Shown here: positions 32,020 to 34,911 of the stretch, piece by piece
Layout: every line of letters begins with the position of its first letter
Position numbering within the stretch: the stretch's first letter is position 1
Source of the DNA: Rhodobacteraceae bacterium WFHF2C18
GTDB lineage: Bacteria > Pseudomonadota > Alphaproteobacteria > Rhodobacterales > Rhodobacteraceae
Direction: 5' to 3'
Length of the DNA stretch: 64,000 nucleotides
Assembly: GCA_002166865.1 (NCBI GenBank)
Contig: NHTQ01000004.1
Coordinates: forward strand, 186,001 to 250,000
The notes under the pieces: model-generated
What the model saw: the letters and a program-made list of their open reading frames with translations, nothing else
What the model was told of the DNA's origin: nothing
Database searches by the model: none
Made by a program: the position numbers and the translations under genes

Positions 32020-32388
32020 ATGCGCAACGCGGCACTGGTTCTGGGCGTGATCGGCGGGCTGGTGGCCATGCTGGTGGGATTTTTCAGCTACGGCTACACG
32101 GAATTCATCGCCGAATATGGCGAGATCGAGGGCCTGGCCAAACAGGTCGAGAACGTGGGCCTGATCCGGGCGGTCAGCTTCCTGTCGCCACTGCTGGCCA
32201 TCGCCGGCGGGGCGATGGCCAAGGTGCGCGCGCTTTGGGGCGGGATCCTGATGCTGGTTTCGGCCGGGGCGATGATCTACGCCTTCGGGTTCAACGTCTT
32301 CACCATGTTCCCGGTGGGGTTCACGGCGCTTGGCGGGTTGCTGGCCGTGGCGGCGGGGAAGCCGGACGAACCCAAGGCGCATTTCTAG
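32020..32388 (+). CDS. four-helix membrane protein of unknown function
   Basis: Inner-membrane protein of 122 residues with four hydrophobic helices (about residues 5-26, 50-68, 73-93, 95-113) and a short charged loop after the first. I do not recognise the family; small DUF4064-like proteins have a similar layout. GGGAG precedes the ATG. It follows the arsC-like gene by 45 bases. Its last 68 bases overlap the 3' end of bufD, which is on the other strand, a rare tail-to-tail overlap for this window. Confidence 0.68.
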   Translation: MRNAALVLGVIGGLVAMLVGFFSYGYTEFIAEYGEIEGLAKQVENVGLIRAVSFLSPLLAIAGGAMAKVRALWGGILMLVSAGAMIYAFGFNVFTMFPVGFTALGGLLAVAAGKPDEPKAHF

Positions 32389-32923
32389 ACAGCACGTGGT
32401 CGAGCGAGAGCGGACCGGCACCCTTGAAGACCAGCACGAGCAGCAGGAAGATCCAGAGCGCGCGTTGATCCAGCAGCGCCGCATCCGGGGCCCCGTCGAA
32501 CCAGGCGCCCACGGTTTCGGGCTCGTCGATCGCGCCGTGGCCGTACAGATCGGTCAGGCTCTGCACCGCGACGAAGCCGATCATCCCGAGCGCGGCCAGC
32601 CGGGTGAGAAGCCCCAGAACGATCAGCAGGGGCAGCAGGAATTCCGCCCAGGTCCCGGCCAGGACGACCGCCGTGTGGTAAGCCGAGAGTTGGCCCACAT
32701 CATAGCCTGCCGCCTCCATCGCCCTGGGGAAGATCTGCGCATAGGCGCCCATGGACGGAGAAAACAAGCCCGTCACGCCGCCGCCGAGCTTGGTCAGGGC
32801 CGAATTCCAGAAGTACACCAAAAGGATGGCGGCAAACATCAAGCGGGCCAGCGTGGGCAGGATCCAGTCCGCCCGTTCGACAGCTGCAAAGACGCGGCCG
32901 TGAAGCGATATCAGGTATCTCAT
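32321..32923 (-). CDS. bufD: DoxX-family membrane protein of the bufferin operon
   Basis: Inner-membrane protein of 200 residues with the DoxX four-helix pattern: RLMFAAILLVYFWNSALTKL, TAVVLAGTWAEFLLPLLIVLGLLTRLAALGMIGFVAV and a final helix ALWIFLLLVLVFKGAGPLSLDH. DoxX proteins often end buf operons and are thought to supply a redox or membrane function to the pathway; this is inferred. It starts three bases after the bufC stop. The C-terminal tail (residues 180-200) is Pro/Arg-rich. Confidence 0.83.
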   Translation of the reverse strand: MRYLISLHGRVFAAVERADWILPTLARLMFAAILLVYFWNSALTKLGGGVTGLFSPSMGAYAQIFPRAMEAAGYDVGQLSAYHTAVVLAGTWAEFLLPLLIVLGLLTRLAALGMIGFVAVQSLTDLYGHGAIDEPETVGAWFDGAPDAALLDQRALWIFLLLVLVFKGAGPLSLDHVLSRNAPWVRPASPPPRPATRQAP

Positions 32924-32926
32924 CGG

Positions 32927-33679
32927 TCAATCTCCAACTTGAATGGCGGTAATCGCATGCCCCGACAGAAGCAGGCCGAGCGCGCCAGAAAGATCGAACT
33001 GCGCGGCCTCGGTCTGCCCGGCCTCGGCGGCCTCGGCCAGTGGTTGGCCCGCGTGCAGCGCCGCGATGAAGGCGGCGGCGCCCGCCGGCAGGACCATCGC
33101 CTCGGGGTCATAGCCGGGCCGCAGGATCAGGGTGTCCTGCGGATGCATTTCGGGCGCGGGCTGGCCCTCGACGGCCTGTCGCCAGAGGCCGTGCACCGGC
33201 CAGGACGAGCGCAGCAGGCACAGGGACGGGGCCAGGCGAAGGCGCGTTGCGGCCAAGGTGTCGGGGGGCAGGGCCTGCAGGTCGGCGGGATCGATCGGAT
33301 CCGCGTCCGCGGCGTGATAGGCGGCGCGCAGCGCCTGCTCCAGCCGGGCGAGATCGGGCAGGTATTCCAGGTGCTGCAGCGGGACGAAGCCTGCAAGGAA
33401 GTCAGCAAACTCCGCCCCGTAAAACATCAGCATCGGGGTCCGGGGCGGATGCCGACGCAGGAAGATGCCGGCGATATCGCGGAACGCGTCCTGGCCCAGC
33501 AATGCGCGCACGGCCGGGAAGCCGACCTCGAGCGCCTCGGTCAGGCTGAGGGCCACGTTGTTGCGATAGACCGAGAAGCGGTTGCCCGCAGGCCGGCCGC
33601 GGCCGTCGCTCAATCCGGCGGGCACCGCGCGGGCGCCGTCCAGAAGCGCGTCGTGGAAGGTGGTCTGCGTGACTGTCAT
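32927..33679 (-). CDS. bufC: BufC-type partner protein (DUF2063)
   Basis: Partner of the MNIO enzyme in bufferin maturation, expected to recognise the precursor peptide. The 250-residue protein has the DUF2063 N-terminal helical domain (FHDALLDGARAV, RFSVYRNNVALSLTEALEVGFPAVRALLG, FRDIAGIFLRRHPP) often annotated as putative DNA-binding domain, and a C-terminal part related to NGO1945. Its ATG overlaps the bufB stop (ATGA), so the two are made in equal amounts. DNA binding is not expected. Confidence 0.88.
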   Translation of the reverse strand: MTVTQTTFHDALLDGARAVPAGLSDGRGRPAGNRFSVYRNNVALSLTEALEVGFPAVRALLGQDAFRDIAGIFLRRHPPRTPMLMFYGAEFADFLAGFVPLQHLEYLPDLARLEQALRAAYHAADADPIDPADLQALPPDTLAATRLRLAPSLCLLRSSWPVHGLWRQAVEGQPAPEMHPQDTLILRPGYDPEAMVLPAGAAAFIAALHAGQPLAEAAEAGQTEAAQFDLSGALGLLLSGHAITAIQVGD

Positions 33680-34533
33680 GCCGGCACCTTTTGCAGGGCC
33701 TGTTCCGCGCGGGTGGCTTCGTCCGCCAGATCGGGCCAGGGCGGGACATTGGCATCCCACTCGACCAGGACGGGACGCGGGCCCATGATCTCCAGCGCGT
33801 GATCGAGAAGCGCCCAGACCGGATCGGCCACTTCGCGCCCGTGACTGTCGATCAGGAGGGGGGCGCCGTTATCGTCGGCATCCTCGTCGTGGCCGCCCAG
33901 GTGGATCTCGCCAACCTCGTCCAGCGGAAAAGCGTCGATATAGGTGCGCGGGTCGGTCCCCAGATTGACGGCCGAGACGAAGACGTTGTTGACATCAAGA
34001 AGCAATCCACAGCCGGTGCGTCGCGCGAGTTCGGCCAGGAACTCGGTCTCGGCGTAGGTGCTTTCGTCGAAGGCCAGGTAGCTTGAGGGGTTCTCAAGCA
34101 GCATGCGCCGGCCCAGAACCTGCTGCACCTCGTCGATATGATCGGCCACGCGGGCCAGCGTGGCCCCGGTATAAGGCAAGGGAAGCAGATCGTTCAGGAA
34201 ATGGCTGTCATGGGTGGACCACGCCAGGTGTTCGGAGAAGCTGGCGGGCTGCAGCCAGTCGCACAGGTGCCGCAGCCGTGCCAGATGGTCGGGATCCAGC
34301 CGGCCCTCCCCGCCGATCGACAGCCCGACACCGTGAACGGAGATCGGGAAGTGCTCGGACAGGTGGCGCAGTTGTGCAAGGGGGCGTCCGCCGTCGCCCA
34401 TGTAGTTCTCGGCGTGAATTTCCAGCCACGCCACGGGCGTCGGATCGGTGGTGATGTCGGTGAAATGCTGCGGCTTGTAACCGACCCCGGGGGCGGCGGG
34501 CAGGCGCGGGGCGGGATGAGAGATATCGCGCAT
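33676..34533 (-). CDS. bufB: BufB, multinuclear iron-dependent oxidase (MNIO, DUF692)
   Basis: Cytosolic TIM-barrel oxidase of 285 residues that modifies cysteines of the bufferin precursor, likely to thiooxazole-type heterocycles, using a multi-iron site and oxygen. Conserved ligand segments are all visible: WLEIHAENYMG, SVHGVGLSIGG, SEHLAWS, MLLENPSSYL, LLLDVNNVFVSAVNLG, EIHLGGH, DSHG and VLVEWDANVP. It follows bufA after a 60-base gap containing a strong hairpin and is coupled to bufC. Confidence 0.93.
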   Translation of the reverse strand: MRDISHPAPRLPAAPGVGYKPQHFTDITTDPTPVAWLEIHAENYMGDGGRPLAQLRHLSEHFPISVHGVGLSIGGEGRLDPDHLARLRHLCDWLQPASFSEHLAWSTHDSHFLNDLLPLPYTGATLARVADHIDEVQQVLGRRMLLENPSSYLAFDESTYAETEFLAELARRTGCGLLLDVNNVFVSAVNLGTDPRTYIDAFPLDEVGEIHLGGHDEDADDNGAPLLIDSHGREVADPVWALLDHALEIMGPRPVLVEWDANVPPWPDLADEATRAEQALQKVPA

Positions 34534-34555
34534 CGGGGGACCTCGTGCATGAAGG

Positions 34556-34586
34556 AAGGGGTGCGCGGGCGCCCGCGCACCCCCTT
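34556..34586 (-). terminator. GC hairpin between bufA and bufB, likely attenuator
   Basis: GGGGTGCGCGGGC (34558-34570) pairs perfectly with GCCCGCGCACCCC (34571-34583), and flanking AAGG/CCTT adds pairs. On the minus strand it begins about eight bases after the bufA stop and is followed by TTCCTTC, only weakly T-rich. It should reduce read-through into the maturation genes. Confidence 0.7.
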
Positions 34587-34593
34587 GGTCAGG

Positions 34594-34911
34594 TCAGGAG
34601 GGCAGATCGCGGTCCAGCTCCTCCAGCGAGCCCTTGCGGTCGCCGGGCAGCTCGACTTCGCCGCCGTCGGCCATGACGGGCGAACTGGTTTCGCAGGTGC
34701 CTTTCTCGACCAGCGTCCAGGCGTTGCCCTGGTAATCGACGGTCGATGTGCCGGCGCAGGTTGTGCCGGCGCCGGCCTTGCAGTCGTTCTCGCCGGCCAG
34801 GGATACGCCGTAGCACTTCACCGCCTCGGCCGCCGTGGCCGACTGGGTGTGCGCGGCGACGGCCGCCGTCACGGCACTGGCGATTGCCACGGTTTTCATC
34901 GTCTTGGACAT
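34594..34911 (-). CDS. bufA: bufferin precursor peptide (DUF2282)
   Basis: Precursor of a ribosomally made, post-translationally modified copper-binding peptide. The 105-residue protein has a signal peptide (MKTVAIASAVTAAVAAHTQSATA), then the DUF2282 core with four cysteines C33, C44, C52 and C73 in the contexts VKCYGVSLAGENDC, TTCAGTS and KGTCET, the expected sites for MNIO modification or metal binding. GGGAGAG precedes the chosen ATG. The last 30 residues form an acidic, Gly/Pro-containing tail beyond the fourth cysteine, longer than I expect in typical family members. Exported bufferins sequester copper. Confidence 0.92.
   Translation of the reverse strand: MSKTMKTVAIASAVTAAVAAHTQSATAAEAVKCYGVSLAGENDCKAGAGTTCAGTSTVDYQGNAWTLVEKGTCETSSPVMADGGEVELPGDRKGSLEELDRDLPS

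What the first reader, a model, noticed from the sequence alone, without database searches (positions are those of the whole stretch)
32321..34911. Complete bufferin (copper-binding RiPP) operon bufA-bufB-bufC-bufD
A DUF2282 precursor with signal peptide and four conserved cysteines is followed by an MNIO (DUF692) enzyme, a DUF2063 partner with four-base overlap, and a DoxX protein. This is the gene set of the recently characterised bufferins, exported peptides whose cysteines are converted to heterocycles to bind copper. It is commonly annotated as four hypothetical or DUF genes, so it is easily missed. Interpretation rests on family knowledge; the sequence shows order and motifs.
Basis: partly seen in the sequence, partly recalled or inferred. 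Interest (0 to 1): 0.85.

Follow-up and report, generated by a model that had tools for sequence, protein, structure and literature searches.

The report
Bufferin operon with a swapped switch
This stretch holds a complete four-gene operon predicted to make an exported, likely copper-trapping peptide (a bufferin), and in front of it lies a paired DNA palindrome that 74 of 105 examined genomes of its family carry at this operon, that was absent in all 12 where the known stress-switch gene nrsF lies beside the operon, and that would be the landing site of a still unknown regulator.

Summary
In detail: bufA (DUF2282), bufB (MNIO), bufC (DUF2063) and bufD (DoxX) lie in order on the minus strand at 32321-34911, all four over Pfam cut-offs; BufB passes NCBIfam's bufferin-maturase cut-off. 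The reading as a Buf1 bufferin operon is supported, and the kind is known; NCBI already names several close relatives BufA1. Two corrections: the reported targets are the two central cysteines, and the mature peptide would have about 78 residues, not 105. A natural experiment fits: of 106 family genomes with bufA, the only one without an MNIO hit (G423) lacks exactly the central cysteines. New is the control region: a 34-bp tandem palindrome 85 bp upstream of bufA. Its core occurs once here and exactly once in each of 20 of 149 family genomes (this one included), always in the buf operon. A matrix finds it at 74 of 105 bufA genes, at 0 of 12 with NrsF within 3 kb (11 of these 12 have a sigma-F-like box) and in 0 of 947 control stretches. 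Nineteen of 105 have neither. Copper binding, modification and the regulator are untested.

The parts
34594..34911 (-). bufA, Buf1 (DUF2282) bufferin precursor, 105 aa, Cys33, Cys44, Cys52, Cys73; conserved C-terminal tail GSLxxLxRDLP (residues 94-104)
   Evidence: Pfam DUF2282 77.6 bits; the four Cys and tail residues G94, L96, R101, D102 are invariant in 81 of 81 sequences (window plus 80 loci chosen by similarity, and one of the six search words lay in the tail)
34831..34911 (-). predicted Sec signal peptide of BufA (residues 1-27)
   Evidence: basic start, hydrophobic stretch (mean Kyte-Doolittle 2.0-2.2 for 11-residue windows starting at residues 8-10), A-x-A before residue 28; no signal-peptide program was run
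33676..34533 (-). bufB, MNIO-family bufferin maturase, 285 aa
   Evidence: NCBIfam MNIO_BufB 377.5 bits, cut-off 310; PDB 3bww E 1.6e-43; 33 polar or charged residues (17 of them His, Asp or Glu pairs of the kind that bind iron were not assigned individually) are identical in at least 79 of 80 sequences
32927..33679 (-). bufC, DUF2063 plus RRE-like partner protein (PME type 1), 250 aa
   Evidence: Pfam DUF2063 86.5 bits; AlphaFold model pLDDT 93.5 matches TglI 8hci_A (E 9.3e-6, TMq 0.60) and NGO1945 3dee (E 4.9e-4, TMq 0.54)
32321..32923 (-). bufD, DoxX-family membrane protein, 200 aa
   Evidence: Pfam DoxX 26.7 bits, cut-off 23.6; found after bufC in 78 of 80 loci, the other two cut by contig ends
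34997..35030 (-). tandem-palindrome promoter element (two TSACG-N4-YGTGA units 15 bp apart), 85 bp upstream of the bufA start
34970..34975 (-). -10-like hexamer TAGGCT
   Evidence: in 51 anchored loci the columns T, A and the last T hold 35, 37 and 40 of 51; no clear -35; inferred
34943..34963 (-). putative hairpin near the predicted 5' end of the mRNA
   Evidence: leader stretches of 60 sequences fold better than mononucleotide shuffles, mean z -1.5; weak evidence
34556..34586 (-). inverted repeat (hairpin) between bufA and bufB; likely sets enzyme expression apart from precursor expression
   Evidence: stem of 8 or more pairs in 71 of 79 gaps and in 86 of 96 family gaps against 86 of 480 shuffled ones

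Best explanation
This is a Buf1-type operon, bufA-bufB-bufC-bufD, predicted to make an exported peptide whose two central cysteines are likely turned into copper-binding thiooxazoles, and its transcription is likely controlled through a tandem-palindrome promoter element instead of the sigma-F/NrsF pair known from Caulobacter. Shown here: the gene order and families and the predicted BufC fold; the four-cysteine core; a 34-bp element 85 bp upstream of bufA whose core is found once in this genome, that most examined bufA genes of the family share and that was not found where NrsF is beside bufA; no NrsF hit in this genome; an inverted repeat between bufA and bufB. Inferred from characterised relatives: BufC presents the precursor to BufB, a multi-iron oxidase that makes thiooxazoles on Cys44 and Cys52; Cys33 and Cys73 form a disulphide after Sec export; the mature peptide chelates excess copper in the periplasm; BufD helps in an unknown way. 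Inferred from the promoter anatomy: an unknown dimeric regulator binds the two palindromes next to a promoter that lacks a clear -35 box and activates it (or represses it until stress); the hairpin behind bufA likely makes more precursor than enzyme.
For: Families and folds. One MNIO and one DUF2282 hit in a 99.56% complete genome; no NrsF hit, while the search rings in its Caulobacter control. Natural experiment: DUF2282 in 106 and MNIO in 105 of 149 family genomes, differing only by G423; 105 of 106 best BufA keep the four-Cys core, and the exception is G423, which has lost the two central Cys and kept the outer two and shows no bufB, bufC or bufD hit in the 8.5 kb read around it. Element: found without supervision in 52 of 54 thrS-bufA gaps; its core pattern occurs once in this genome with up to 1 mismatch and exactly once in each of 20 of 149 family genomes, this one included, against 2 hits of the reversed pattern; 19 of the 20 lie 63-103 bp before bufA and one lies between bufA and bufB. 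Matrix over 12 bits: 74 of 105 bufA genes (20 of these hold the exact pattern by construction, left-out training sites still score 30.6 or more), 0 of 947 control stretches (largest 9.3). NrsF within 3 kb of bufA in 12 genomes (coordinates): 0 of 12 have the element and 11 of 12 have a GTAACC-N15-17-CGAA box with at most 2 mismatches 70-115 bp upstream, against 1 of 74 with the element. The element stays with bufA in 12 of 72 loci in which no thrS end was found within 800 bp on the same strand. On a quick BufB tree of 100 genomes the two promoter types need at least 3 changes.
Against: No regulator for the element was found; no consistent regulator gene stands beside the operons in ten loci read by eye. 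19 of 105 bufA genes have neither the element nor NrsF within 3 kb; two of them (G354 10.0, G422 8.5) lie just under the matrix cut-off, and 3 of the 19 have a two-mismatch sigma-F box in range, so further promoter types or plain divergence exist. G412 has a weak element score (13.6) together with a weak, distant NrsF hit. In G428, G377 and G423 NrsF is present but not near bufA. NrsF-type genomes are mostly one clade, so the 12-versus-74 contrast is far from 12 independent cases, and the tree has many weak branches. The BufA model is poor (pLDDT 57). BufC and BufD fall below NCBIfam's Hvf cut-offs. Nothing here tests copper, expression or the modification.
Confidence: 0.78

Rival explanations
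1. An ordinary bufferin operon under a sigma-F-like or other ECF sigma factor; the conserved element is only an accessory site.
For: Sigma-F/NrsF control is the described mode in Caulobacter (PMC3511200, passages), and 12 of 105 family operons have NrsF within 3 kb of bufA. A two-mismatch GTCGCC-16-CGAA begins 52 bp before bufA in the window. Other ECF sigma genes of this genome were not searched.
Against: No NrsF hit in this genome. Sigma-F-like boxes with at most 1 mismatch: 0 of 74 element-bearing genes against 9 of 12 with NrsF beside bufA. The two-mismatch match in the window lies outside the 70-115 bp range of the sigma-F type.
Confidence: 0.12
2. The element belongs to thrS (its terminator or 3' end), and bufA merely lies downstream.
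For: 60 of 72 element-bearing loci are thrS-linked (window and G412 not counted).
Against: 12 of 72 have no thrS end within 800 bp on the same strand (six of these stretches are only about 3 kb long) yet keep the element 61-135 bp before bufA, and 8 thrS-linked loci score under the cut-off, two of them narrowly; in G359 a strong copy lies between bufA and bufB.
Confidence: 0.04
3. The peptide is a stress metallophore for another challenge (gold, mercury, oxidative or sulphur stress) and copper is secondary.
For: Buf operons are linked to gold, chromium and cadmium stress in relatives (PMC12452194 section 21; PMC3511200 passages). None of the 16 window proteins scanned with Pfam is a recognised copper gene (the others were not scanned). 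Two relocated operons stand beside genes that look like sulphite and PAPS reductase (names by eye).
Against: Characterised products of this enzyme pair generally bind copper (PMC13097082 section 11), and Buf1 of Caulobacter enhances growth in copper excess (PMC12452194 section 21).
Confidence: 0.2
4. The operon is of the oxazolin/Hvf (EGKCG) type.
For: HvfB, HvfC and HvfX models touch BufB, BufC and BufD.
Against: All three stay below their cut-offs, MNIO_BufB passes its own, and BufA has no EGKCG repeat (sequence).
Confidence: 0.02

Closest known systems
Buf1 operon CC3254-CC3257 of Caulobacter vibrioides (bufferin 1)
   Same: Same four families in the same order: DUF2282, DUF692/MNIO, DUF2063, DoxX (PMC3511200 passages; PMC12452194 sections 4, 13, 14)
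   Different: The Caulobacter operon is driven by sigma-F through GTAACC-N16-CGAA, with sigF and its negative regulator (NrsF) next to it; here no NrsF was found and a tandem palindrome stands upstream. The precursor is 105 aa against 93 for CC3254
Captophorins/oxazolins (fontiphorin, HvfA, gonophorin)
   Same: MNIO plus DUF2063/RRE partner; thiooxazole chemistry expected
   Different: The precursor is a four-Cys DUF2282 peptide, not an EGKCG repeat; Hvf models below cut-off
TglHI and MbnBC (pearlin and methanobactin enzymes)
   Same: BufB is related by sequence and BufC by predicted fold (TglI E 9.3e-6; MbnC only E 0.42)
   Different: Precursors without signal peptides and other modifications (PMC12452194 section 4); MbnB model far below its cut-off (61.1/325)

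Membership tests
Buf1 bufferin operon | Precursor matches DUF2282 | tested here: met
   77.6 bits, cut-off 22.4
Buf1 bufferin operon | Four conserved Cys | tested here: met
   Cys33, 44, 52, 73; 81 of 81 sequences, core spacing in 105 of 106 family BufA
Buf1 bufferin operon | Sec signal peptide on the precursor | tested here: inconclusive
   Composition fits but no predictor was run
Buf1 bufferin operon | MNIO enzyme encoded directly after bufA | tested here: met
   MNIO_BufB 377.5 bits, cut-off 310; 3bww match
Buf1 bufferin operon | PME type 1 partner: DUF2063 plus RRE-type domain | tested here: met
   DUF2063 86.5 bits; fold match to 3dee and TglI
Buf1 bufferin operon | DoxX gene in the core set | tested here: met
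   26.7 bits, cut-off 23.6; weak
Buf1 bufferin operon | Central Cys converted to thiooxazoles, outer Cys in a disulphide | not testable with these tools
   Only indirect: G423 has neither an MNIO hit nor the central Cys
Buf1 bufferin operon | Copper chelation and protection | not testable with these tools
   Reported for Caulobacter (PMC12452194 section 21)
Sigma-F/NrsF-controlled Buf1 operon | NrsF anti-sigma gene in the genome | tested here: not met
   0 matches, Caulobacter control rings
Sigma-F/NrsF-controlled Buf1 operon | GTAACC-N16-CGAA-like promoter 70-115 bp before bufA (range seen in 11 of 12 NrsF-linked genes) | tested here: not met
   Best match has 2 mismatches and begins 52 bp before bufA
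Buf2 (BufA2) | NCBIfam Cu_RiPP_BufA2 cut-off | tested here: not met
   23.9 bits against 60
Hvf/oxazolin | HvfB, HvfC, HvfX equivalog cut-offs | tested here: not met
   234.9/360, 53.8/142, 30.8/80

The most novel reading that the evidence does not exclude
In Roseobacter-type bacteria the bufferin operon has been captured by a dedicated, single-target regulator that reads a tandem palindrome and has traded places with the sigma-F/NrsF switch several times in evolution; together with the hairpin behind bufA this gives a precursor-rich copper response independent of that sigma factor. The conserved BufA tail GSLxxLxRDLP may in addition be the missing recognition sequence for the BufC RRE.
Probability: 0.45. 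Interest if true: 0.6.

Novelty: new variant of a known kind. Interest (0 to 1): 0.45.

Why it matters
[quoted passage not shown] The family survey gives a cheap, testable contrast: two promoter types, nearly exclusive of each other, on the same genes. Finding the protein that binds the palindromes would identify a new stress regulator in Roseobacter-group bacteria. G423 is one piece of evolutionary support that the two central cysteines are what the MNIO works on. The conserved tail is a candidate for the recognition motif that a recent survey of RREs did not find for DUF2063 partners (PMC12710340, passage).

Tried and rejected
BufA tail as a marker of MNIO-dependence: in 65 stretches from a phylum sample the GSL part of the tail is widespread and is also kept in two bufA genes with no bufB hit in the stretch read (L109, about 3 kb; L133, 11 kb), so it does not separate them; left as a speculation. 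BufA structure: pLDDT 57, not used. Rfam: no match up to E 1 in 32000-35400. Sequence search of the PDB with BufC (E up to 0.1) and BufA (E up to 1): none. Regulator beside the operon: none consistent in ten loci. 5'-leader hairpin: alignment A3 is too gappy for pair counts, which were not made; only a weak fold signal, so no claim. Literature: 'bufferin' as a word start drowned in 'buffering'; DUF692 with copper and Rhodobacteraceae, and bufferins with promoter and alphaproteobacteria, found 0 papers; the NrsF search listed 9 papers. Of PMC12452194 sections 4, 13, 14, 18, 19 and 21 were read; of PMC13097082 section 11 and passages; of PMC12538549, PMC12710340 and PMC3511200 passages; the others were seen as listings. 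That the element is not in print is therefore only as good. The founding bufferin paper (Leprevost et al.) did not appear in these searches and is cited through PMC12452194 and PMC13097082.

Rows dropped or overlapping: G392 (bufA at a contig edge, no upstream DNA) is left out of the 105. 100 of 106 BufB entered the tree (101 located, 1 too short), so 12 of the 16 NrsF-bearing genomes with bufA are in it as NrsF rows and G412 as 'other'. Hairpin counts use 96 of the 101 located gaps and 79 of 80. Where a genome has two DUF2282 genes (G305, G394) the better one was used. The matrix was trained on 19 of the 20 exact sites; some of these genomes look the same as loci (identical sites in L012/L128, L036/L116, L004/L118), so the 59 of 81 is not fully independent of the training set.
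Full report
Observation. The four genes are present, complete and in the order stated, on the minus strand. Profile searches give DUF2282, MNIO, DUF2063 and DoxX above the Pfam cut-offs, and BufB passes NCBIfam's cut-off for the bufferin maturase. bufB and bufC overlap by ATGA; bufD follows bufC after three bases. The genome (3.36 Mb, 99.56% complete) gives one MNIO and one DUF2282 hit.

Relatives. 78 of 80 hold A, B, C and D in order; L014 and L039 end early. NCBI already calls several close relatives 'BufA1 family periplasmic bufferin-type metallophore', so the operon as such is not hidden.

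Mechanism of the peptide. The four cysteines are invariant in 81 of 81 sequences. PMC12452194 (sections 4, 13, 14, 18, 19, 21 read) describes Buf1 bufferins: central cysteines become thiooxazoles, outer ones form a disulphide, Sec export, copper chelation. PMC13097082 (section 11 and passages read) proposes the wider class name captophorins. BufB matches 3bww (E 1.6e-43), and 33 polar or charged residues are identical in at least 79 of 80 BufB sequences. BufC folds confidently (pLDDT 93.5), and the only solved structures matched at E up to 0.001 are two TglI entries and NGO1945, both MNIO partners (NGO1945's role from PMC12452194 section 18).

A natural experiment. In 149 family genomes DUF2282 occurs in 106 and MNIO in 105; the sets differ by one genome. 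This is G423 (100% complete): no MNIO hit, no bufB, bufC or bufD hit in the 8.5 kb around its bufA, and a BufA in which the two central cysteines are gone while the outer two remain; the other 105 keep the four-Cys core. It is one case, but it is what is expected if the central pair exists for the MNIO.

Control region. The gap between thrS and bufA was searched for a shared motif without prior assumption in 54 sequences, the window included: a 24-bp motif was found in 52 (log-likelihood 754, against 82 for one shuffled set). Anchored columns of 51 loci show two units of TSACG-N4-YGTGA, 15 bp apart, and a TA...T box that begins 22 bp after the element. In this genome the core pattern occurs once even with one mismatch allowed. 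In 149 family genomes it occurs exactly in 20, once in each, this one included (reversed pattern 2 hits): 19 times 63-103 bp before bufA and once, in G359, between bufA and bufB. A 34-bp matrix from the 19 other sites scores over 12 at 59 of 81 sequences of the first set (shuffled maximum 4.2; misses are mostly outside the Rhodobacteraceae by title, plus L008, L046, L023, L027, L041 and L061) and at 74 of 105 bufA genes of the family sample, G412 and the window included. 947 other stretches give a maximum of 9.3, and left-out training sites score 30.6 or more.

The swap. Caulobacter's buf operon is driven by sigma-F through GTAACC-N16-CGAA, with a negative regulator of sigma-F, NrsF, next to it (PMC3511200, passages). 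NrsF occurs in 22 of 149 family genomes (21 over the cut-off), not in this one. By the coordinates it lies within 3 kb of bufA in 12. None of these 12 has the element, and 11 have a sigma-F-like box (at most two mismatches, spacer 15-17) at 70-115 bp; of 74 element-bearing genes 1 has such a box and none has one with at most one mismatch anywhere in 250 bp. Over all 106 genomes the table of element against NrsF over cut-off is 1, 73, 15, 17, Fisher p 1e-8 (G392, without upstream DNA, sits in the 17; the genomes are related, so p overstates). The overlap is G412, weak on both sides. On a quick BufB tree of 100 rows, 10 of 12 NrsF rows fall together (weak support, 75) with G412, and G308 and G428 lie among element rows; at least three changes are needed. 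In G428 NrsF is on another contig.

Operon anatomy. Between bufA and bufB lies an inverted repeat: 86 of 96 family gaps have a stem of eight or more pairs against 86 of 480 shuffled ones, with both promoter types (60 of 67 element, 11 of 12 NrsF). It likely separates precursor from enzyme levels; this is inferred.

What is not explained. The regulator of the element is unknown; 19 of 105 bufA genes have neither control type, two of them just under the cut-off. BufA's tail is recognised in 91 of 106 family proteins by a loose test and is shortened to GSLTP-like ends or missing in many of the phylum sample. PMC12710340 (passage) reports no specific recognition motif for DUF2063-associated RREs; the tail is a candidate, untested.

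Verdict. The control region differs from the described sigma-F type and is shared by most of the family sample: a variant of a known kind.

Noticed in passing
32020-32388 (+): A 122-residue hydrophobic protein without a Pfam match is encoded convergently to bufD; a relative lies in 42 of 80 buf loci, in some also where thrS is not adjacent.
   Followed up: partly
L279 (genome G423): A bufA relative in a genome without an MNIO hit has lost the two central cysteines and kept the outer two.
   Followed up: yes
L114 (genome G359): A strong copy of the promoter element lies between bufA and bufB, in addition to a weak one (14.2) before bufA.
   Followed up: partly
L026, L150: Buf operons that are not next to thrS stand downstream of genes that look like sulphite and PAPS reductase genes (judged by eye).
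   Followed up: no
18618-20176 (+): DUF1007 gene followed by a NicO-type nickel/cobalt transporter gene.
   Followed up: no
16651-18078 (-): Cytochrome bd oxidase subunit I gene.
   Followed up: no
27946-30204 (+): The long open frame contains a ThyX gene only in its last third (Thy1 match at residues 490-692), so its true start is likely further downstream.
   Followed up: no
genomes G305 and G394: Two DUF2282 genes close together with one MNIO gene; the bufB of G394 is reported with one stop inside.
   Followed up: no
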